Part shown: positions 7,913 to 40,320 of the stretch, piece by piece
Layout: each line of letters opens with the position of its first letter
Position numbering within the stretch: the stretch's first letter is position 1
DNA from: Duganella sp. BuS-21
GTDB taxonomy: Bacteria; Pseudomonadota; Gammaproteobacteria; Burkholderiales; Burkholderiaceae_D
Assembly (NCBI GenBank): GCA_041874725.1
Contig: CP097466.1
Coordinates: 2,046,001-2,110,000, forward strand
Direction: 5' to 3'
DNA: 64,000 nt
Program-made: the position numbers and the translations under genes
Notes under the pieces: generated by a model
The model's database searches: none
Told to the model about the DNA's origin: nothing
The model's input: only the letters and a program-made list of their open reading frames with translations

Positions 7913-9682
7913 CTATGCCCTCAACTTGTCTGCCGGCAAGTTGGCGAGGAATTGGTGGATTTGCGAGACCACAGCCGCGCCTTCGCCCACCGCTGCGGCG
8001 ACGCGTTTGGTGGAGGTGGCGCGCACGTCGCCGATGGCGAACACGCCCGGCACGCTGGTCTCCAGCGCCGCGCGCGAGGGCAGGTCTTTCGGATACACGC
8101 CGTTGCTGAAGTTGGCCTTGCACTGCGCCTTGGTGACGTCGAAGCCGGTGCGGATGAAACCGTTCGCGTCGACGTCGACACCGCAGTCGCTCAGCCAGCT
8201 CGTGTTCGGTTCGGCGCCGATGAACAGGAACACGCGGCAGACATCGTAATCGCATTCCTCTTCGGTCTTGGCGTTGCGGATGCGGACTTGTTTCAAGCCG
8301 TCCTCGTCGCCTTCGAGCGCGATGATTTCAGTGCAGGTGTGCAGTTCGATATTCGGCGTGGCCTGGATGCGCTCGATCAGGTAGCTCGACATGGTGGACG
8401 ACAGGCTTTCCTTGCGGATTAGCATGTGCACCTTGGAGGCGTAGTTCGCCAGGAACACCGCCGCCTGTCCGGCCGAGTTGCCGCCGCCGACCAGCACGAT
8501 TTCCTCCGTCTTGCACAGCTTGGCTTCCACCGGCGACGCCCAGTAGTACACGCCCTTGCCCTCGAACTGCTTGAGGTTGGCCAGCGACGGCCGGCGGTAG
8601 CGCGCGCCGCAGGACAGCACCACGGTGCGCGCCTTCAGGTGCTGCAGGCTGCCGCACATTTCCACCTGCAGCGGATAGGTGTCGCAGATCAGCCGCCCGG
8701 CCGGCGCCGGGATCGCCACCTCGACGCCGAACTTTTGCGCCTGCACGTAGGCGCGGCCCGCCAGCGCGCGGCCGGAGACGCCGGTGGGGAAACCCAGGTA
8801 GTTCTCGATGCGGGCGCTGGCGCCGGCCTGGCCGCCGTAGGCGCGGGTTTCCAGCGCCAGCACCGACAGGCCTTCCGAAGCGGCGTACACCGCCGTGGCC
8901 AGCCCGGCAGGACCGGCGCCGACCACGATCACATCCCACACCTTGTCGCTGTCGAGTTGCGGCAGCATGCCGAGGCATCGGCCGATCTCGACCACGGTGG
9001 GATTTTTCTTGACCTCGCCGTCCGGACACACCACCAGCGGCAGTTCTTCCGGTGTCGGCCGGTAGTGTTCCATCAGCTCGGCAGCTTGCCGGTCCTGGGT
9101 GGGATCGAGCACGATGTGCGGATGGCCGTTGGCGGCCAGGAAGGTTTGCAGCGTGTGGATGCGGCCGTGGCCGCGCGGTCCGACGATCACCGGGCCGCCC
9201 GAGGCTTCCTCGATCAAACCGACGCGGCGCAGGATCAGCGCGCGCACGATGCGTTCGCCCAGTTCGGCGTGCGCCACCAGCAGCGCGCGCAGCGATTCCG
9301 ACGGCACCACCAGCGCCTCGACGTCGCCCACGGCGTGGCCGTTGCCCAGCGAAGGCCGGCCCGACAGCTGCGCCACTTCGCCGCTGAACTGGCCGGGCAG
9401 GTGGGTGGTGACGTAGGAGGTGTTGCCCAGGCCGTCGTAGCGGTTGACTTCAATCCCGCCCTTGAGCACCAGCACCAGGCCGAAGCTGGTCTTGCCGGCC
9501 TCGAAGATGGGCTCGCCGTTCTTGAAGCACATGATGCGGCCGAAGCGCTGCATGTGGCGGATGTCGGCCGCGCTCAGGATCGGAAAGATCTGATGCCGGC
9601 GCTGCTCCAGATTGAGCGCGCTGCTTGGCGCGGGTTCGTCCGGCGTCAGTTCGGGCAGCAGGTCGGAGGAGGTGGTTGCCAT
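7913..9682 (-). CDS. cNMP-binding-domain flavoprotein, thioredoxin-reductase-like but without the CxxC
   Basis: A 589-residue fusion. Residues about 35-150 form a cyclic-nucleotide-binding (CRP-like) domain, about 165-235 a glutaredoxin-like segment, and about 250-589 a two-dinucleotide-domain flavoprotein (VVGAGPAGLATAVY for FAD, VLVGGGNSAGQAA for NAD(P)H). In thioredoxin reductases the second domain has CATC; here the aligned residues are WASP (381-384), so the redox disulfide is missing. It is probably an NAD(P)H-dependent flavoprotein acting on another partner. The gene is monocistronic and divergent from cysM. Confidence 0.85.
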   Translation of the reverse strand: MATTSSDLLPELTPDEPAPSSALNLEQRRHQIFPILSAADIRHMQRFGRIMCFKNGEPIFEAGKTSFGLVLVLKGGIEVNRYDGLGNTSYVTTHLPGQFSGEVAQLSGRPSLGNGHAVGDVEALVVPSESLRALLVAHAELGERIVRALILRRVGLIEEASGGPVIVGPRGHGRIHTLQTFLAANGHPHIVLDPTQDRQAAELMEHYRPTPEELPLVVCPDGEVKKNPTVVEIGRCLGMLPQLDSDKVWDVIVVGAGPAGLATAVYAASEGLSVLALETRAYGGQAGASARIENYLGFPTGVSGRALAGRAYVQAQKFGVEVAIPAPAGRLICDTYPLQVEMCGSLQHLKARTVVLSCGARYRRPSLANLKQFEGKGVYYWASPVEAKLCKTEEIVLVGGGNSAGQAAVFLANYASKVHMLIRKESLSSTMSSYLIERIQATPNIELHTCTEIIALEGDEDGLKQVRIRNAKTEEECDYDVCRVFLFIGAEPNTSWLSDCGVDVDANGFIRTGFDVTKAQCKANFSNGVYPKDLPSRAALETSVPGVFAIGDVRATSTKRVAAAVGEGAAVVSQIHQFLANLPADKLRA

Positions 9683-9825
9683 GGAAATCCGCTATGAAGA
9701 TGGTTGCACAAGTGTTGCCAGTCTAGCGCATGCGCGCCGCCCAGTCCAAAGTCTTATGGGAGGGCCGGCCGCTTTCCTGCAACTGGGCTAAAATGGTTGT
9801 TTTGGCGAACTCAAACAAGAACACA

Positions 9826-10728
9826 ATGGCTTACAAGACTTTGCAGGATACGATCGGCAACACGCCGCTGGTGCAACTGGTGCGTCTGCCCGGCGCCGAT
9901 GCGGCGGCCCGCAACAACATCATCCTGGGCAAGCTGGAAGGCAATAATCCGGCCGGCTCCGTCAAGGACCGCGCCGCCATGTCGATGCTGACCCGCGCCG
10001 AGGAGCGCGGCGACATCAAGCCCGGCGACACCCTGATCGAAGCGACCAGCGGCAACACCGGCATCGCGCTGGCAATGGCCGCCGCCATCCGCGGCTACAA
10101 GATGCTGCTGCTGATGCCGGAAAACCTGAGCGTGGAACGGCGCCAGAGCATGGCCGCCTACGGCGCGCAGATCATGCTTACGCCCAAGACCGGCGGCATG
10201 GAATACGCGCGCGACATGGCCGAGCAGTTGCAGAAGGACGGCAAGGGCATCATCCTCGACCAGTTCGGCAACCAGGACAACGCCCGCGCCCACTACGACA
10301 GCACCGGCCCGGAAATCTGGCGCGACACCGACGGCCGCGTGACGCACTTCGTCAGCGCCATGGGCACCACCGGCACCATCATGGGCACCTCGCGCTACCT
10401 GAAGGAACAGAATCCGGAAATCCAGATCATCGGTGCTGAGCCGGAAGAGGGCTCGTCCATCCCCGGCATCCGCAAATGGCCGGAAGCCTACCTGCCGAAG
10501 ATCTATGACCGTTCGCGCGTGGATCGGGTGGAAGCTGTGTCGCAGGCGGCGGCCGAACGCATGGCGCGCCGCATGGCCGCCGAGGAAGGCATCTTCTGCG
10601 GCATCTCGGCCGCCGGCGCCTGCGAGATCGCGCTGCGCATTTCGCAAACCGTGGAAAACGCCACCATCGTGTTCATCATCTGCGACCGTGGCGACCGCTA
10701 CCTGTCGACCGGCGTGTTTCCTGCATAA
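9826..10728 (+). CDS. cysM: Cysteine synthase B (O-acetylserine sulfhydrylase)
   Basis: Makes cysteine from O-acetylserine and sulfide (or S-sulfocysteine from thiosulfate). The 300-residue PLP enzyme has the cofactor lysine K47 in PAGSVKDRA, the phosphate/substrate loop TSGNTGIAL, and a CysM-like C-terminus (GIFCGISAAGA ... RGDRYLSTGVFP). I start it at ATG 9826 (MAYKTLQDTIGNTPLV), which matches the family N-terminus; the frame is open further upstream but without homology. Confidence 0.95.
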   Translation: MAYKTLQDTIGNTPLVQLVRLPGADAAARNNIILGKLEGNNPAGSVKDRAAMSMLTRAEERGDIKPGDTLIEATSGNTGIALAMAAAIRGYKMLLLMPENLSVERRQSMAAYGAQIMLTPKTGGMEYARDMAEQLQKDGKGIILDQFGNQDNARAHYDSTGPEIWRDTDGRVTHFVSAMGTTGTIMGTSRYLKEQNPEIQIIGAEPEEGSSIPGIRKWPEAYLPKIYDRSRVDRVEAVSQAAAERMARRMAAEEGIFCGISAAGACEIALRISQTVENATIVFIICDRGDRYLSTGVFPA

Positions 10729-10749
10729 AAGCTAAGCGCCCAAGCAAAA

Positions 10750-10782
10750 TGCCCTCGTCCCTTGCGTGTAGGGAGGAGGGCA
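10750..10782 (-). terminator. Intrinsic terminator for the HTH gene
   Basis: On the minus strand a long stem (TGCCCTCCTCCCT ... AGGGACGAGGGCA) is followed by TTTTG. It lies 29 bases after the stop of the HTH gene and between two convergent genes, so it may also stop cysM transcripts. Confidence 0.65.
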
Positions 10783-10810
10783 CTTAACCGGTGCTGCGCC
10801 TGCGGCTGGT

Positions 10811-11152
10811 TTAGCCTTGGCCGCCGCCTGGGGTTTCGCCTTCTTTAGGCTTGAATTGCTTGTCGCTGATGCGGAACTTGTTGCGGCGGTCGCCCATCAA
10901 GTAACGCAGGTCGCGGATGCTCAGGTCGCTCACTTCATGCATGCGGATCAGCAGCGAAGCGCCGACCGGCAGACGGTGGTGACGAATTTTGCTGATCACA
11001 GGCGGCGCGACTTCCAGCGCACGCGACAGTGCCGCGTCGTTTTTCAGACGCAGATTCTCGATCAGGGTATCGAGCAGGCGGTTGGGATTGTATTGCAGCA
11101 GATCATCGCCATCCGCATCGTTGTTCATGTCTATGCCGACTTGGTTTGTCAT
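10811..11152 (-). CDS. Small XRE-like helix-turn-helix protein
   Basis: A 113-residue acidic protein with a central HTH-like segment (LDTLIENLRLKNDAALSRAL ... PVISKIRHHRLPVG) resembling phage-repressor-type DNA-binding domains, and a polar C-terminal tail. I chose the ATG at 11152, which has a GAAGGA site upstream, over a TTG at 11185. It is probably a regulator, but the target is unknown. The upstream 400-bp AT-rich region with several palindromic GTTGT/ACAAC motifs would hold its promoter. Confidence 0.6.
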   Translation of the reverse strand: MTNQVGIDMNNDADGDDLLQYNPNRLLDTLIENLRLKNDAALSRALEVAPPVISKIRHHRLPVGASLLIRMHEVSDLSIRDLRYLMGDRRNKFRISDKQFKPKEGETPGGGQG

Positions 11153-11271
11153 GTCGTCTTTTCCTTCTGTAAAGTTGTCCTGCAAAGTACAACACTCGGG
11201 GCTTTGCTGCGTCTATGTCCATCCTTACCAGGGCGACTCACACACGGGACACGGGTTCCAGGATAACAAGT

Positions 11272-11300
11272 TTCATAATATATACACAATTGTACAACAA
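11272..11300 (-). promoter_or_regulatory. Candidate sigma-70 promoter for the HTH gene
   Basis: On the minus strand TTGTTG and TATGAA are separated by exactly 17 bases, 120 bases before the chosen start codon. It was recognised by consensus only. Confidence 0.3.
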
Positions 11301-11428
11301 TCTGCAATCTAATACTTGGCAGCAATAAAAAAAAGCTCTTCCCACAAGGTATTGTTGTCCGACTGCAACATTGTGTGAGAATTATACACCGACTGGTATG
11401 TTAAGCTCTGTTGTGCACACTTTGTTTA

Positions 11429-11446
11429 ACAATTAAAGTTAATTGT
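11429..11446. promoter_or_regulatory. Palindrome ACAATTAA-AG-TTAATTGT
   Basis: A perfect 8+2+8 palindrome in the AT-rich region upstream of the HTH gene. It is a plausible operator, perhaps for autoregulation, but no regulator is proven. Confidence 0.35.
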
Positions 11447-11530
11447 AAAGCAATTTCGTTGTAAAGTTGCTCAACTCGCCCGCCTATCGTGCGCGGGCAG
11501 TAATAATTTCCAAGTGTCAACTTAACGATA

Positions 11531-11548
11531 CCGTGGGCACGCCCACGG
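11531..11548 (-). terminator. GC-rich hairpin after mltB
   Basis: A perfect 8-bp stem CCGTGGGC / GCCCACGG with a 2-nt loop, 22 bases past the mltB stop. No T-run follows on the minus strand, so termination strength is uncertain. Confidence 0.4.
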
Positions 11549-11569
11549 GCCTAAGCTTTTTACGCTTGC

Positions 11570-12745
11570 TTACATTCCTGAAGTAAGTCCTGACGCCGTT
11601 CCCGGCGCCGCTCCCGAGGCGGCGCGCGCCGTGCGCACCGCGCGGCCCAGCTCCACCACCGACATCGCGTAAAAATAGCTGCGGTTGTACTGCGTGATGG
11701 CGAAGAAATTACTATTCGCCAGCCAGTACTCGGTCGGCTCGGCGCCGTTCTGTAAATCCACCAGGCCATACAGCTGGTCCGGCGGCGGCGCCGCCGGCGT
11801 CACGCCCGCCGCGCTCAGTTCCTCGCTGCGGTACTTGGCTTCCAGTCCCTGATTGATCATCGCTTCCCAGGCGCGGTTGGGCGACACGCTGGCCGCGAAC
11901 ACCAGCGGGCCGGTCTGTCCGCGCTGCCAGCCGTGGCCGGCCAGGAAGGCCGCCACGCTGCCGATGGCGTCGCTGCTGGAGCCGAGCAGGTCGACGGCGC
12001 CGTTGCCGTCGAAATCGACCGCGTATTTCATCACGCTGCTGGGCATGAACTGCGGCATGCCGACCGCGCCGGCGAACGAGCCCTTGAGCGACAGCGGATC
12101 GATGCCGGTCTGGCGCGCGAACAGCAAGGTCGCCTCCACTTCGCCGCGGAAGAAGGCCATGCGCTCGCGCCGCTGCGGCGCTTCCGGATAGGAGAAGGCC
12201 AGCGTGGTCAGCGCGTCGAGCACGCGGAAGCGGCCGGTGTTGCGGCCGTACACGGTTTCAATGCCGATGATGGCCACGATGACGTCGGCCGGAATGCCGT
12301 ACTGCGATTCGGCGCGGGCCAGCGCCTCGCTGTTCTCGTTCCAGAATTTCACGCCGGCGTCGATGCGCACCGGGTCGATCATCAGCTTGCTGTAGGCTTG
12401 CCAGTTCTTCGGCTTGCCCGGCGGCGCCGGCTTGACCAGCTGCACGGCGGCGTCGACGTAGCGCACCTGCGCCATCAGCGTGTCCAGCGCGGCGCGGTCG
12501 AAACCGTGGCGGGCCGCCAGGTCGTCGAGGAAGGCGCGCACCTCCTTCCAGTCGCCGAAGTTGACGTATTCGCCGACGTAGTCGATGGCCGGCACGGCCT
12601 TCTTTTTCGGCGCGGCCGGCTTTTTCTTTTTCTGCATGCTCGGCGGCAGGGTGTAGCCATAGCGGTCGACCTGGGCGCTGGCGGCGCCGGCGCTAAGGGT
12701 GGCTGCGCTGAGCAGCAGGGCGGTCATCAAAGTCTTCATCGGCAT
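11570..12745 (-). CDS. mltB: Lytic murein transglycosylase B
   Basis: Cleaves the MurNAc-GlcNAc bond of peptidoglycan to 1,6-anhydro ends in the periplasm. The 391-residue protein has a signal peptide (about 1-24), a lysine/proline-rich linker, and the MltB catalytic glutamate E163 in IIGIETVYGRNTG, followed by GAVGMPQFMPSS. No lipobox cysteine is seen, so it looks soluble rather than a lipoprotein. Its start overlaps the end of the upstream TgpA gene by 10 bases, so it is probably the last gene of the MoxR-DUF58-TgpA operon. Confidence 0.9.
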   Translation of the reverse strand: MPMKTLMTALLLSAATLSAGAASAQVDRYGYTLPPSMQKKKKPAAPKKKAVPAIDYVGEYVNFGDWKEVRAFLDDLAARHGFDRAALDTLMAQVRYVDAAVQLVKPAPPGKPKNWQAYSKLMIDPVRIDAGVKFWNENSEALARAESQYGIPADVIVAIIGIETVYGRNTGRFRVLDALTTLAFSYPEAPQRRERMAFFRGEVEATLLFARQTGIDPLSLKGSFAGAVGMPQFMPSSVMKYAVDFDGNGAVDLLGSSSDAIGSVAAFLAGHGWQRGQTGPLVFAASVSPNRAWEAMINQGLEAKYRSEELSAAGVTPAAPPPDQLYGLVDLQNGAEPTEYWLANSNFFAITQYNRSYFYAMSVVELGRAVRTARAASGAAPGTASGLTSGM

Positions 12746-32852: not shown

Positions 32853-34184
32853 ATGTTCGACGATACTCTGCACTTCCTTGCTAACCACTTTGATGCGCCT
32901 GACTGGAACCGGCTGGGGGAGCATTTACCGGTCGAGTGGATTGAAGAAGCCGTGCAACGGACCGAGGCAACAAGCATTCGCCAGCGGAGGCTGCCGGCTG
33001 AGCAAGTAGTGTGGCTGATGGTGGCGTTGGCGCTCTATCGTCATCAGTCGATCAGTGAAGTGCTCGATACGCTCGGCCTGGCCGTTCCAGACGCGCAGCC
33101 CCCTTTTGTCAGCAAGAGCGCTACCGCCCAAGCGCGCCAGCGCCTCGGCTCAGAACCATTGAAATGGTTATTCGAGCATTCAGCTCAGCATTGGTGTGGT
33201 CAGGATCGTCGCGCCTATGTCTTCAAGGGACTGGTTCTGTTCGCAATGGATGGCACTACCTTGCGGACCCACGACAATGAGGAGACCCGGGAACACTTCG
33301 GAGCGCAAAATTATTCCAGCGGTGCCGTAGCCAGTTATCCCCAGGTACGCGGCGTGAGCTTGACCGCGTTGTCCACCCATCTTGTTCACAGCGCGGCATT
33401 TGGCAAGTACGGCACGAACGAAATGCTGTATGCCAAAGAGCTGATCGAGGGGATACCCAACAATTCACTCACCGTGTTCGATCGCGGATTTCTCTCGGCT
33501 GAAATTCTGTGCGCGTTGACCAGAGGGGGCAGCGAGCGCCATTTCGTCATCCCGGCTAAATCGAATACGTGCTGGGAAGTGATCGAAGGCGATGAAAATG
33601 GTAACGACTTCACAGTGCGGATGCGCGTGTCGCCGCAGGCACGTGCCAAGTGCGCCCAGTTGCCGGAATTCTGGGAGGCGCGTGCCATTACCGTCATCGA
33701 TCAGCAGGGGCGCAAACGTATCTTACTTACTTCGCTACGTGATCGACGTCGCTACAAACCTGCCGATATCGCACAATGTTACACGCGTCGCTGGGGCATC
33801 GAGACAAGCTACCGTGAACTTAAGCAAACCATGCTTGGCGCCACGCTTACGCTGCGATCAAAAACCGTCGACGGCGTGTACCAAGAAATCTGGGGAACCT
33901 TGATTGCGTACAACCTGATCCGATTGGAGATCGCCAAAGCCGCCTTGGTCGTCAAATGCGAACCGACCGAAGTGAGCTTTATCCGCGCCTTCCACTTGAT
34001 CCAGTTCGAACTCCAATGGGCTGCCACAACCAAGTCGTACGGCAAACTGCCTGCTTCGATGAAACATCTTCGAGAAAGGTTGGTTAGTCTCCTCAATGAC
34101 GAACGGCCCGATCGAAAATTCGACCGGGCCGTCAAGGCAAAACCACAGCGATATGCCACGCGCGTTCTACGAAAACCTGCTTAA
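32853..34184 (+). CDS. IS4-family DDE transposase
   Basis: A 443-residue, intact transposase. The DDE triad is D133 (FAMDGTTLRTHD), D210 (TVFDRGFLSAEI) and E317 within the IS4 signature Y310-x2-R-x3-E-x6-K324 (CYTRRWGIETSYRELKQ). The N-terminal IS4 domain (PAEQVVWLMVALALYRHQSI) is present. The length fits IS4 itself (about 442 residues). Confidence 0.95.
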   Translation: MFDDTLHFLANHFDAPDWNRLGEHLPVEWIEEAVQRTEATSIRQRRLPAEQVVWLMVALALYRHQSISEVLDTLGLAVPDAQPPFVSKSATAQARQRLGSEPLKWLFEHSAQHWCGQDRRAYVFKGLVLFAMDGTTLRTHDNEETREHFGAQNYSSGAVASYPQVRGVSLTALSTHLVHSAAFGKYGTNEMLYAKELIEGIPNNSLTVFDRGFLSAEILCALTRGGSERHFVIPAKSNTCWEVIEGDENGNDFTVRMRVSPQARAKCAQLPEFWEARAITVIDQQGRKRILLTSLRDRRRYKPADIAQCYTRRWGIETSYRELKQTMLGATLTLRSKTVDGVYQEIWGTLIAYNLIRLEIAKAALVVKCEPTEVSFIRAFHLIQFELQWAATTKSYGKLPASMKHLRERLVSLLNDERPDRKFDRAVKAKPQRYATRVLRKPA

Positions 34185-37189: not shown

Positions 37190-37262
37190 AGGGGCAGACA
37201 TGGTCCGGGAGAGGGGCTACGCCCGGCTGCTACTGCGGAGCAGCCCCTGCCTTACCTGGGGT
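37190..37262. repeat. 73-bp GC-rich dispersed repeat, copy B
   Basis: It matches the 20932-21004 element (shared CAGACATGGTCCGGG, GAGGGGCT.CGCCC, CTGCGGAGC.GCCCC). It lies between the convergent glk and xseA genes, and its last 11 bases supply the final residues and stop codon of XseA, so the insertion remodelled that gene's end. Confidence 0.7.
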
Positions 37263-38613
37263 GAACCCCTTTGATGTCGATGCGCGCGCTACCCTCCGCC
37301 AGTGTCAAGGTCAGCGCCGTGTCGGCGTGCAGTTGATCAGGGGTGCGCACGACAGTGCCATTCTCATCCGTCACAATCGCGTAGCCGCGCTCCAGCGTGC
37401 GCTGCGGGTTCAACATGTCCAGTTGCGACGACAAGGCCGCCAGCGCCTCGCGCCGCTGGCTCAGTTGCGTGTTAATGCTGATGGCTGCGCGGTGGCGCAG
37501 GCCTTGCATCGTCGCGCGTACCGCCGTCACATCCGGCTTGCGCGCCCCCAGGCGGCCGCTCAGGCGATCCAGCTGGTGGCGCGCCTGCGTCAGCGGCGCG
37601 CGGTTGGCGTGGCTGAGCGCGGTCGACAGCGCTGCCAGCTGGTGGCGCTGCTGCGCAATCTGCGCGCGAGGATTGAGCAGCCTGCGCGTGTGACCATCCA
37701 GCGTCTGCTCCGCGTCGTTCAGCGCGCGGCGCATGGCGCGGCGCAAATCGATCACGTCGGCCTTCAATGAACCGATCCAGTCCGTGCGCGGCGTCACCGC
37801 CAGTTCGGCCGCCGCCGTCGGCGTGGCCGCGCGCAGGTCGGCGGCAAAGTCGCAGATGGTGAAGTCGGTCTCGTGGCCGACGCCGGAGATCACCGGCATG
37901 CGACAGTTGGCCACCGCGTACGCCACTTCCTCGTCATTGAACGACCACAGATCCTCGATGCTGCCGCCGCCACGGCACACGATCAGCACCTCGCATTCGC
38001 CGCGCAGCGAGGCCGTGTCGATGGCCGCCGCGATCTTCCCAGCCGCCAGTTGGCCCTGCACCGGCGTTGGATACAACACCACCCGCACATGCGGCGCGCG
38101 GCGCTTGAGCGCCGTCAGCACGTCGCGCAGCGCCGCCGCCTGCGGGCTGGTGACGATGCCCACCGTGCGCGGGAACATCGGCAACGCACGCTTGCGGTCC
38201 GCATGAAACAGGCCGGCCGCGTCGAGCTTTTCCTTGAGCCGCTGGAAGGCCTCGAACAGCGAACCGACGCCGGCGCGGCGGATCGCCTCCACATTGATCT
38301 GGTAATCCCCGCGCGGCCCGTACAAGGTCACCAGCGCCCGCACCTCGACCTTGTCGCCTTCGCGCGGCACGAAGTTGGCATACTGCGCGCGCCCACGGAA
38401 CATCACGGCCCGCACCTGCGCGCCGTCGTCCTTGAGCGTGAAGTACCAATGGCCCGAAGCGGCGCGCGTGAAGTTGGAGATCTCGCCGCCGATCCAGCTC
38501 AGTGGAAAAGTACGCTCCAGCAGCCGCGCCACAGCCTGGTTCAGCGCGCTGACGGTCATTACGGGCGCGGCATTGGCTACGGGGGCGGAATCGTTGCGGT
38601 CGTCGAAGGTCAT
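37252..38613 (-). CDS. xseA: Exodeoxyribonuclease VII large subunit
   Basis: A 453-residue subunit of the nuclease that degrades single-stranded DNA to oligonucleotides. It has the N-terminal OB-fold ([20 protein letters not shown]), the catalytic core ([54 protein letters not shown]) and the long C-terminal coiled coil. xseB is not adjacent. Its start lies 20 bases from the DnaA-box array that begins at 38633. Confidence 0.94.
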
Positions 38614-38766
38614 AGGATTTCAATAATGGAAACTATCCACAGTATGTGCGTTTTGTCACACAGCGGTAACAGCATAGGTTTGGCGCCAGCTATTATAGGT
38701 AAATCCATGATTTTAAAGAGTAAACATTTCTGCCGTATTTGCGTGCATTGAGGAAAAACCCTTATG

Positions 38767-38833
38767 GATCAAGCACTTTGAGCATAGGCTGCCCGGTTAC
38801 GCACAAAGTTATCCACAAAAGATGTGCGAAACT
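38767..38833 (+). repeat. IHF-DnaA module 1
   Basis: 67 bp. GATCAAGCACTTT (IHF-like, two mismatches), then after ATCAA and 36 bases TTATCCACA at 38809-38817, then TGTGCGAAACT. An A5 tract lies just upstream, as at strong IHF sites. Confidence 0.7.
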
Positions 38834-38909
38834 TTAGTGAGTGATAGCCTTTTTCTTGTTGCAGTTTTTGTCATGCTTAAAATTTACGCATGGAAATTAT
38901 AGTGTGAAA

Positions 38910-38976
38910 AATCAACAACTTAAGGTGGGGCAACCCCTGTTTCGCACACTTTTATCCACAGAATTTGTGCAAAACT
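38910..38976 (+). repeat. IHF-DnaA module 2
   Basis: 67 bp. AATCAACAACTTA is a perfect WATCAANNNNTTR match; TTATCCACA at 38952-38960; TGTGCAAAACT follows. Spacing is the same as module 1. Confidence 0.75.
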
Positions 38977-39104
38977 CTGTTTTTCTCCATATTGCGCGCC
39001 GGGCACCGAATAGCGGGGATTGTCAACTTGATAGCTTGGTGTGGCCCGGATACCGGCTTGAAATCGGCTGCTTTATTTTTGCGCATGGTAACAATCGGCT
39101 TAGG

Positions 39105-39171
39105 AATCAAGGACTTGCCAAGTCAACTTGGACCTTGCTAACAATCTTATCCACACAAAGTGTGCAGAACT
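39105..39171 (+). repeat. IHF-DnaA module 3
   Basis: 67 bp. AATCAAGGACTTG is a perfect IHF consensus match; TTATCCACA at 39147-39155; TGTGCAGAACT follows. A 40-bp part around the box (39134-39173) is 38/40 identical to module 4. Confidence 0.75.
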
Positions 39172-39307
39172 GCGGCGCGGCCAGCGATAGCTGAAAACGA
39201 TCAGTCGCTTTCCAGCGACCTGCGGTGGATAAGTCGGTTTTCTGCCTGGAAAAGGGTGAAAAACACCCTCCTGCCAAATTTTTACTCAAGGCAAAAAAAC
39301 CCTTATA

Positions 39308-39374
39308 AATCAACGCTGTTTCATGTTGCTGGATCGCTTGCTAACAATCTTATCCACATTAAGTGTGCAGAACT
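39308..39374 (+). repeat. IHF-DnaA module 4
   Basis: 67 bp. AATCAACGCTGTT (IHF-like, two mismatches in the TTR part), an A7 tract just upstream, TTATCCACA at 39350-39358, TGTGCAGAACT. Closely related to module 3. Confidence 0.7.
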
Positions 39375-39449
39375 GCATAGCGTAGTTTGGCTACTTATTC
39401 ATCGCCGCACGGCTGCGTGTTTTTTGCGCATTCGAAAAATACGCTTTAA

Positions 39450-39515
39450 AATCAATGGGGTAGAGATTGCCCAGCACGTTGCGCACAATGTTGTCCACAG
39501 AATGTGGGCATAACT
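39450..39515 (+). repeat. IHF-DnaA module 5
   Basis: 66 bp. AATCAATGGGGTA (one mismatch to the IHF consensus), then TTGTCCACA at 39491-39499 (one change from TTATCCACA) and TGTGGGCATAACT. Spacing is one base shorter than in the others. Confidence 0.65.
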
Positions 39516-39571
39516 GGAGTAAGCTGCAAGGCAGCTGCGCGATTTTTAAGCTGGGCAACTATTCCCTTACA

Positions 39572-39638
39572 GATCAATAGTTTAGCGCTGAAGCACTGGG
39601 CTTGCTCACATTATTGTCCACAGAAAATGTTGAGAACT
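39572..39638 (+). repeat. IHF-DnaA module 6
   Basis: 67 bp. GATCAATAGTTTA (one mismatch at W), TTGTCCACA at 39614-39622, TGTTGAGAACT. It is the last module, 77 bases before the exbB start. Confidence 0.65.
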
Positions 39639-39714
39639 CCGCCAGACACTTGCCGACATCGGCCCAACAAGATACATTGCGCCATTCGGGTGTTCATATC
39701 TACAGGAGTTCGTT

Positions 39715-40320
39715 TTGCTCGCCATATTCCAAGCTGCAGGTTGGCCTATCTGGTTGTTGTTGATTGCTTCCATCGTCGCGACGGCCCTGATTGTCGAACG
39801 CCTGATGTATCTGCGCCGCAGCAAGATCATCCCGAAGAAGCTGCTGGACGAAGTGGTCCAGGTCTACCGCAATAACCACATCACACCCGACATCATCGAG
39901 AAGCTGGAGAAAAGCTCGCCGCTGGGCGTGGTGCTGTCGGCCGCGCTGCGCAACGTCGACGCGCCGCGCGAAGTGATGAAGGAATCGATCGAGGAGGCCG
40001 GCAGCGGCGTGGCGCACACGCTGGAGCGCTTCCTCACCACGCTGGGCACGATTGCCACGCTGGCCCCGCTGATGGGCCTGTTCGGCACGGTGGTCGGCAT
40101 GATCGAGATCTTCGGCTCGCAGAACGCGGCCGGTTCCAATCCGGCGGGGCTGGCGCACGGTATTTCGGTGGCCTTGTACAACACCGGCTTCGGCCTGGCG
40201 ATCGCCATGCCGACCCTGGTGTTCTACCGTCACTTCCGCGCGCTGGTGGACAGTTTCATCATCGACATGGAACAGCAGGCGGTGAAGTTTGTCGACATCG
40301 TCCACAGCAAGCGCAAATAA
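39715..40320 (+). CDS. exbB: ExbB/TolQ-family proton channel protein
   Basis: A 201-residue MotA/TolQ/ExbB protein with three membrane helices (about residues 10-30, 110-133 and 155-178) that with ExbD uses the proton gradient to energise TonB. TTG 39715 is the start, supported by AGGAG 7 bases upstream and by the N-terminus LAIFQAAGWPIWLLLIASIV. exbD follows after 9 bases and lpxK overlaps exbD, so this is one operon. Confidence 0.88.
   Translation: MLAIFQAAGWPIWLLLIASIVATALIVERLMYLRRSKIIPKKLLDEVVQVYRNNHITPDIIEKLEKSSPLGVVLSAALRNVDAPREVMKESIEEAGSGVAHTLERFLTTLGTIATLAPLMGLFGTVVGMIEIFGSQNAAGSNPAGLAHGISVALYNTGFGLAIAMPTLVFYRHFRALVDSFIIDMEQQAVKFVDIVHSKRK

What the first reader, a model, noticed from the sequence alone, without database searches (positions are those of the whole stretch)
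38633..39638. Array of six IHF/DnaA-box modules in a 1.1 kb gene-free region: candidate DnaA-control locus
Seen: six modules of 67, 67, 67, 67, 66 and 67 bp. Each begins with an IHF-like site (two perfect WATCAANNNNTTR, others with 1-2 mismatches), then a TTATCCACA or TTGTCCACA box whose first base lies 37 nt (36 once) after the end of ATCAA, then TGTG(C).NNAACT. A-tracts often precede the IHF site. A solitary box at 38633 and an inverted near-match at 39224 add to it. Modules 3 and 4 share 38 of 40 bases. Established: IHF and DnaA boxes make up datA, DARS2 and oriC. Inference: a datA-like or DARS-like locus or a secondary origin. dnaA, dnaN and gyrB are absent here, so it is not obviously the usual oriC.
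Basis: partly seen in the sequence, partly recalled or inferred. Interest (0 to 1): 0.88.

Follow-up and report, generated by a model that had tools for sequence, protein, structure and literature searches.

The report
Tandem array of DARS2-like DnaA-control sites
A non-coding stretch halfway along one chromosome arm carries six copies of a DNA unit built like the E. coli switch that recharges DnaA, the protein that starts chromosome copying; relatives carry one to nine copies, spaced as if they work together, so copy number may tune when replication starts.

Summary
The six modules are real and far beyond chance. Each has three DnaA-box-like sites (weak III, strong II, inverted weak I; gaps 3 and 5 bp): the box order, orientation and spacing of the E. 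coli DARS1 and DARS2 cores. An IHF site lies on the box-III side, as in DARS2, 37 nt before box II. A further conserved 17-bp palindrome (TGC-N11-GCA, Fis-like at best) lies beyond it, so the unit is about 102 bp, not 67. Loci of 36 of 36 genus genomes examined hold xseA, exbB and 5-8 units; other Oxalobacteraceae have 1-9. The array sits mid-replichore (0.45-0.64) in 12 genomes; in seven of these the origin is only assumed opposite dif. The origin lies 1.6-1.9 Mb away, so this is not oriC. Spacings between units change by about whole helical turns, distances to the flanking genes do not, which suggests the units act together; the statistics weaken under stricter collapsing. Best reading: a multi-copy DARS2-like locus that reactivates ADP-DnaA, with titration as a side effect. 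No binding or activity is shown. DARS-like sequences in many proteobacteria are already mentioned in print; I saw no description of a tandem IHF-coupled array.

The parts
38731..38831 (+). Unit 1: palindrome 38731-38747, IHF-like 38767-38779, box III 38797-38805, box II 38809-38817, box I (inverted) 38823-38831
38874..38974 (+). Unit 2: palindrome 38874-38890, perfect IHF consensus 38910-38922, box III 38940-38948, box II 38952-38960, box I 38966-38974
39069..39169 (+). Unit 3: palindrome 39069-39085, perfect IHF consensus 39105-39117, box III 39135-39143, box II 39147-39155, box I 39161-39169
39272..39372 (+). Unit 4: palindrome-like 39272-39288, IHF-like 39308-39320, box III 39338-39346, box II 39350-39358, box I 39364-39372
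39414..39513 (+). Unit 5 (IHF spacing 36): palindrome 39414-39430, IHF-like 39450-39462, box III 39479-39487, box II TTGTCCACA 39491-39499, box I 39505-39513
39536..39636 (+). Unit 6: degenerate palindrome 39536-39552, IHF-like 39572-39584, box III 39602-39610, box II TTGTCCACA 39614-39622, box I (weak) 39628-39636
38633..38641 (+). Solitary box CTATCCACA, 20 bp before the xseA start and 176 bp before box II of unit 1
39224..39232 (-). Inverted near-match TTATCCACC between units 3 and 4
   Evidence: identical in 6 of 7 aligned genomes
37252..38613 (-). xseA, exonuclease VII large subunit, flanking gene
   Evidence: TIGR00237, 477 bits, cut-off 180
39715..40320 (+). exbB/tolQ-family gene, flanking gene
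   Evidence: below the TolQ and ExbB cut-offs, so named by family only

Best explanation
The array is a DnaA-control locus made of tandem DARS2-like units. Proposed mechanism: ADP-DnaA binds strong box II and, head to head, inverted box I, while box III steadies the complex. IHF bends the DNA just upstream, which also brings the upstream palindrome (possibly bound by a Fis-like protein) near the core. The head-to-head contact releases ADP, and the freed DnaA rebinds ATP. Units on the same face of the helix form one larger complex, so unit number and mid-replichore position would set how strongly and when DnaA is recharged in each cycle. Shown here: anatomy, conservation, spacing, position, and presence of DnaA, Hda and IHF genes. 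Inferred: protein binding, ADP release, cooperation between units and effect on initiation timing.
For: Core geometry III-3-II-5-I in all six units, 0 in shuffles. E. coli DARS1 and DARS2 sequences have the same geometry, and the pattern drawn from this window hits both at 2 mismatches in 20 kb of E. coli DNA. A review gives the definition: equal spacing in DARS1 and DARS2, box I opposite to II and III (PMC5742627, passages); another calls the head-to-head I/II pair functionally essential (PMC10380432, passages). IHF on the box-III side as in DARS2. Conservation: match in 35 of 35 other same-genus genomes; xseA and exbB in 36 of 36 genus loci, cores on one strand only in each; 375 of 392 family genomes carry the core, reversed control 0; 58 of 80 named loci have both xseA and exbB, 16 one of them. 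Cores and IHF sites conserved, spacer free in sequence: invariant fractions 0.87, 0.58, 0.16. Replichore fraction 0.45-0.64 in 12 genomes; E. coli DARS2 0.41, DARS1 0.66. Phased inter-unit spacing, two control distances not in phase. Hda, IHF-alpha and IHF-beta above cut-offs.
Against: No binding or activity data. The gap from IHF site to box III is 17 bp here and 58 bp in E. coli DARS2. Fis assignment is weak: the consensus is degenerate, two offsets overlapping the DnaA boxes match it even better, and no fis gene was found in about 2.3 Mb of this genome. Boxes III and I are weak (unit 6 box I is TGTTGAGAA). In two genomes about 10 kb is inserted between units 1 and 2, so an unbroken array is not required everywhere. 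The phasing statistic falls to R 0.23 (approx. p 5e-3) under stricter collapsing; distinct gap lengths of the named family set alone show no significant best period (446 of 1000 jittered sets as good); and one control distance deviates the other way (z -2.9), so rows are not independent. One paper says the DARS2 core and Fis are specific to gamma-proteobacteria related to E. coli (PMC4245941).
Confidence: 0.66

Rival explanations
1. DnaA titration sink: about 18 DnaA-box-like sites bind DnaA and lower the free pool until the locus is saturated, like the DnaA-box clusters of B. subtilis, without nucleotide exchange.
For: Six strong boxes in 0.8 kb, versus 58 strict boxes in the whole 6.49-Mb genome, where the reversed control pattern gives 38. 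Unit number varies between relatives.
Against: Titration needs no head-to-head weak pair, no fixed IHF spacing and no helical phasing, yet these are what is conserved. Only one strong box per unit is kept.
Confidence: 0.17
2. datA-like locus: IHF-bound units assemble ATP-DnaA and stimulate ATP hydrolysis, switching DnaA off.
For: IHF sites alternate with DnaA boxes along the array. E. coli datA also has a weak box 3 bp before its strong box (4 mismatches to the pattern).
Against: The conserved unit has the head-to-head pair described as characteristic of DARS. E. coli datA lacks the third box at that place. This locus is mid-arm.
Confidence: 0.07
3. Transcriptional control: DnaA and IHF at these sites regulate the divergent xseA and exbB promoters.
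For: The array fills the gap between divergent genes; the solitary conserved box lies 20 bp before the xseA start. Other cores lie next to priA, a replication-restart gene.
Against: Distances from the array to either start codon vary without the inter-unit phase. The xseA-exbB gap is widened by kilobases in several relatives. Up to nine units are more than promoter control needs.
Confidence: 0.08
4. Secondary origin of replication.
For: DnaA boxes and IHF sites in an A+T-richer stretch (37-51% G+C inside a 65% window).
Against: The strand switch of this genome lies between 236 and 430 kb and none is seen near the array; mnmG, parS-like sites and parA-parB are at 440 kb. The head-to-head pair is unlike the head-to-tail oriC arrays.
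Confidence: 0.02

Closest known systems
E. coli DARS2 (rppH-mutH region)
   Same: Three-box core with identical order, orientation and 3/5-bp gaps; IHF site on the box-III side; a further site beyond IHF (Fis in E. coli); intergenic and between oriC and terminus.
   Different: One minimal core in E. coli against six here (5-8 in the genus, 1-9 in the family). IHF-to-box-III gap 17 bp instead of 58. Upstream palindrome not proved to be a Fis site. Different flanking genes.
E. coli DARS1 (bioD-uvrB)
   Same: Same three-box core geometry.
   Different: E. coli DARS1 acts in vitro without additional factors (PMC5742627); each unit here has an IHF-like site.
E. coli datA
   Same: DnaA boxes plus an IHF site, non-coding.
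   Different: No third box at the matching place, so no head-to-head pair of this kind.
B. subtilis DnaA-box clusters outside oriC
   Same: Clustered DnaA boxes away from oriC that could titrate DnaA (PMC13220808, passages).
   Different: B. subtilis lacks IHF, datA and DARS. That its clusters lack this unit architecture is recalled, not tested.

Membership tests
DARS (DnaA-reactivating sequence) | Core of three DnaA boxes I, II, III | tested here: met
   in 303 family units box II averages 0.39 mismatches to TTWTNCACA, I 1.21, III 2.04, background 5.67
DARS (DnaA-reactivating sequence) | Box I opposite in orientation to II and III, with the same spacing as E. coli DARS1 and DARS2 | tested here: met
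   gaps of 5 and 3 bp in E. coli DARS1, DARS2 and all six units
DARS (DnaA-reactivating sequence) | Promotes ADP release from ADP-DnaA and raises initiation | not testable with these tools
   needs purified proteins or mutants
DARS2 subtype | IHF site on the box-III side of the core | tested here: met
   same side and orientation as the IHF-like site I take for IBS1; gap differs (17 vs 58 bp)
DARS2 subtype | Fis site beyond the IHF site | tested here: inconclusive
   TGC-N11-GCA palindrome at the right place, G-13-C in 272 of 304 units, centre 84% A+T; only 52% within 1 mismatch of the Fis consensus (background 2%); no fis gene in about 2.3 Mb searched
DARS2 subtype | Intergenic, between oriC and terminus, conserved position | tested here: met
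   fraction 0.45-0.64 in 12 genomes; origin marked by a conserved box pair in 5 (mnmG and parS-like sites confirmed near it in 2), assumed opposite dif in 7
DARS2 subtype | Partner proteins encoded (DnaA, Hda, IHF) | tested here: met
datA | One unit with an IHF site between its essential DnaA boxes, no head-to-head pair | tested here: not met
   all three boxes lie on one side of the unit's IHF site and II/I are head to head
oriC | Strand-bias switch and origin neighbourhood (mnmG, parAB, parS) | tested here: not met
   the switch lies between 236 and 430 kb and the genes at 440 kb; the array is at 2,085 kb

The most novel reading that the evidence does not exclude
The array is one cooperative machine: several DARS2-type units, each bent by IHF, stacked on the same helical face into one nucleoprotein complex whose unit number sets the gain of DnaA reactivation. 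Its mid-arm position makes it a replication-passage timer, and lineages tune their initiation clock by gaining or losing units in steps that keep helical phase.
Probability: 0.33. Interest if true: 0.87.

Novelty: new variant of a known kind. Interest (0 to 1): 0.74.

Why it matters
DARS control of DnaA has been worked out in E. coli, at loci with one minimal core each. An evolutionarily varied series of one to nine IHF-coupled DARS2-like units at one conserved locus is a natural dose experiment. It makes testable whether DnaA reactivation capacity is set by the number of sites, whether DARS cores cooperate, and why these loci sit mid-replichore. The unit consensus also gives a simple pattern for finding DARS-like sites in other beta- and gamma-proteobacteria, including a recurrent one beside priA.

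Tried and rejected
Structured RNA: no Rfam match in 38400-39900, and the cores fold unevenly (z from -2.8 to +1.3). Mobile or dispersed repeat: the whole region matches only itself in this genome; at up to 2 mismatches five further single cores lie elsewhere in it (236,335; 236,759; 2,751,572; 4,248,248; 4,818,315), and complete units occur at another locus in a few relatives (L185, L188). dnaA-proximal origin: only one strict box upstream of dnaA.

The hemE-priA cluster at 236 kb was first taken for oriC. I prefer 425-440 kb because of mnmG, parS-like sites and parA-parB and because the box pair near 428 kb also lies about 12 kb from mnmG and parS-like sites in G028. Strand bias only places the switch between 236 and 430 kb and sampled GC skew is noisy there, so 236 kb is not excluded by skew alone; the array would then be at about 0.55 of the arm instead of 0.52. 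The list prints forward sites only, so it is not used as evidence; my note that all sites after 390 kb are forward was too strong.

Selection effects. In one search a unit was required to have ATCAA at 36 or 37 nt, so its 200/11/6 split is not a free test. The free test is, where ATCAA was allowed anywhere from 30 to 49 nt: on the array strand distances were 37, six times 36 and once 41; two reverse-strand chance pairs (33 and 32 nt) also appeared. In some searches only units with exact ATCAA at 37 were profiled. In the spacing tests gaps above 330 bp were left out, among them first gaps of 1797, 2489, 3923, 9666 and 9797 bp. One search looked at 20 class-level stretches that I picked by hand. 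The five families without cores were picked after seeing the table; other outside-class families (f222, f226, f230 and others) do have matches.

Fis: two offsets overlapping the DnaA boxes score better against the Fis consensus than the palindrome does, so Fis remains a guess. A paper search for Fis in betaproteobacteria returned nothing; presence of Fis homologues there is recalled only.

Full report
WHAT IS THERE. The window belongs to a 6.49-Mb single-contig genome. Between xseA (minus strand) and an exbB/tolQ-family gene (plus strand) lies a gene-poor stretch of about 1.1 kb, with 37-51% G+C over the array inside a 65% G+C window. It holds six strong DnaA boxes, the only strict TTRTCCACA matches in the window (0.36 expected) and 6 of 58 in the genome, where the reversed control pattern has 38. 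Each strong box (II) is preceded after 3 bp by a weak direct box (III) and followed after 5 bp by a weak inverted box (I): TTNNNCACA-3-TTRTCCACA-5-TGTGNNNAA. Six such cores occur in the window at up to 3 mismatches; 100 shuffles gave none. Five further single cores lie elsewhere in the genome at up to 2 mismatches.

THE UNIT IS LONGER THAN REPORTED. In a profile of 211 units selected for ATCAA 37 nt before box II and aligned there, position -31 is always T and positions -54 to -52 are always A or T. The roughly 18 nt between the IHF site and box III are not conserved in sequence. In 169 non-redundant genus units and 303 family units there is a further element at -78 to -62, TGC-N11-GCA with an A/T centre. 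In 304 units, G and C stand 14 bp apart at -77/-63 in 272, and the 7-bp centre is 84% A+T against 52% regionally. The order in one unit is palindrome, IHF site, box III, box II, box I. Among seven close relatives the invariant fraction is 0.87 in the cores, 0.58 at the IHF sites, 0.16 in the spacers and 0.45 between units.

THE CORE IS A DARS CORE. I read the E. coli MG1655 loci. DARS1 (bioD-uvrB) and DARS2 (rppH-mutH) both have box(+)-5-box(-)-3-box(-), which read from the other strand is III-3-II-5-I. The window-derived pattern finds these two at 2 mismatches in 20 kb of E. coli DNA covering DARS1, DARS2, datA and oriC; datA reaches 4 mismatches and oriC none up to 4. A review states that DARS1 and DARS2 share a three-box core with equal spacing and box I opposite to II and III (PMC5742627, passages read). 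Another says the head-to-head I/II pair is characteristic of DARS and functionally essential (PMC10380432, passages). In DARS2 the IHF sites IBS1 and IBS2 are 3 bp apart and lie between the core and the Fis sites (PMC4245941, passages). The pair of IHF-like sites 3 bp apart in my E. coli sequence lies beyond box III; that these are IBS1-2 is my inference from the spacing. The unit here therefore has the DARS2 order, but the IHF-to-III gap is 17 bp instead of 58.

HOW WIDELY CONSERVED. A DNA search matched 37 of 60 genomes: this one, all 35 others of the genus and one of 24 from other families. In 36 genus genomes, one locus each, there are 5 (12 genomes), 6 (13), 7 (9) or 8 (2) units; xseA and exbB are in 36 of 36 of these loci and cores lie on one strand only in each. 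The core pattern at up to 1 mismatch occurs in 375 of 392 genomes of the family (40 of 44 genera); the reversed pattern occurs in none. At up to 2 mismatches it occurs in 310 of 369 genomes across the class, with two control matches, and in 164 of 299 across the phylum, with one. By my count of that table, five families outside the class (f221, f228, f231, f234, f238) have it in 0 of 58 genomes, while others such as f222 mostly have it. Requiring the IHF spacing as well, a scan of named genomes stopped at 118 stretches, of which 80 were listed: Duganella, Massilia, Janthinobacterium, Pseudoduganella, Rugamonas, Telluria, Undibacterium, Herbaspirillum, Noviherbaspirillum, Collimonas, Oxalicibacterium, Herminiimonas and a few others. 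Of these 80, 58 hold both xseA and exbB, 16 hold one of them and 6 neither. Several relatives have a single unit at the same place, for example Noviherbaspirillum, Herminiimonas, Brachymonas and Andreprevotia. Of 12 single-unit xseA-exbB loci printed, 8 carry an exact TGC-N11-GCA at -77 to -79. One ancestral unit followed by amplification is the simplest history (inference).

POSITION. In the 2.32 Mb of this genome that I fetched, GGGCAGGG sites are 52 forward and 2 reverse from 430 kb to 3.6 Mb, 3 and 44 from 5.0 Mb through the contig start to 236 kb, and 7 and 4 between 236 and 430 kb. The origin is therefore between 236 and 430 kb or close to it. I place it at 425-440 kb: two oriC-like box units near 424.9 and 428.1 kb, parS-like sites at 439,809 and 439,859, then mnmG (TIGR00136), rsmG-like, parA-like and parB genes. 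A dif-like site lies at 3,614,343. The array is at 0.52 of its replichore (about 0.55 if the origin were at 236 kb). In four other complete genus genomes with the same box pair it is at 0.54, 0.45, 0.56 and 0.49; mnmG and parS-like sites were seen near the pair in one of the four (G028), the 20 kb read in the others did not reach or show them. In seven more genomes, with the origin assumed opposite dif, it is at 0.49-0.64. E. coli DARS2 is at 0.41 and DARS1 at 0.66, using a dif position from memory.

SPACING BETWEEN UNITS. Gaps between neighbouring units run from 107 to 289 bp in the named family set, gaps above 330 bp being left out. After collapsing equal-length gaps with at least 60% identical sequence, 212 of 501 remain. 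They show a period of 10.7 bp with R 0.476, reached by 0 of 1000 jittered sets, and a mean phase near zero, so successive strong boxes tend to face the same side of the helix. Of 65 distinct length changes between matching gaps, 24 are 1-2 bp, 24 are 8-12, 11 are 17-23, and 6 are 43, 43, 58, 65, 66 and 118; none is 3-7, 13-16 or 24-42. The distance from the last unit to the exbB start and from the xseA start to the first unit do not share this preference (z -0.23 and -2.9). Limits: rows are related by descent. With distinct values only, the genus set is phased (1 of 1000 jittered sets as good) but the named family set is not at its best period (446 of 1000; 41 of 1000 at 10.5 bp). Collapsing at 45% identity leaves R 0.23 with an approximate p of 5e-3. 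The control z of -2.9 shows that such z values are inflated.

MECHANISM. DnaA, Hda (TIGR03420) and both IHF subunits are encoded, so ADP-DnaA should arise and need recharging. The best reading is tandem DARS2-like reactivation. The head-to-head pair and the fixed IHF distance speak against simple titration, although 18 box-like sites will titrate DnaA as well. None of this is shown biochemically here.

PRIOR ART. That DARS-like sequences occur in many proteobacteria is stated in PMC10380432, while PMC4245941 limits the DARS2 core to relatives of E. coli. In my paper searches (several list only part of their hits) no listed title or shown start of an abstract describes a tandem DARS array or a DARS in Oxalobacteraceae. 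Only open-licence papers are held, and I read passages, not whole papers.

Noticed in passing
L041 1836-1870 and 2260-2294 (genome 236,335-236,369 and 236,759-236,793): Two DARS-geometry cores with strong outer boxes beside priA (TIGR00595) and a hemE-like gene; a similar pair lies between hemE and priA in L117. An origin here is not excluded by strand bias.
   Followed up: partly
L255, L261, L265, L045, L107: DARS-geometry cores next to priA (NCBIfam; the L107 gene is cut by the locus end) in other families of the class and, for L107, another genus of this family: a recurrent priA-adjacent site.
   Followed up: partly
L267 3022 (G049, another family of the order): A core also lies between xseA and an exbB/tolQ-family gene there, without the 17-bp IHF spacing, suggesting the site is older than the family.
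   Followed up: partly
L185 782 and L188 3127, 5616: Complete or near-complete units (palindrome, IHF-like site, core) in loci without xseA or exbB, so the unit exists at a second place in some relatives.
   Followed up: no
L079 about 8900-12180 (genome 424.9-428.2 kb): Two oriC-like box units flank a GGDEF-EAL gene; in G020, G028 and G031 two 159-bp box pairs lie only some 260-350 bases apart. The record starts at dnaA, not at the origin.
   Followed up: partly
genome 411.7-463.7 kb: Twelve strict DnaA boxes in 52 kb around the preferred origin, reminiscent of the origin-proximal box enrichment reported for E. coli (PMC12371093, passages).
   Followed up: no
L046 and L047 (G018, G015): About 10 kb inserted between units 1 and 2; in L047 it carries a large Big-domain protein, an Asp/Arg-hydroxylase-domain protein and a tail-collar domain protein.
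   Followed up: partly
genome 2,045,628-2,045,897, 0.1-0.4 kb left of the window: The IHF-beta gene lies about 39 kb from the array.
   Followed up: no
window 32853-34184: IS4-type transposase gene.
   Followed up: partly
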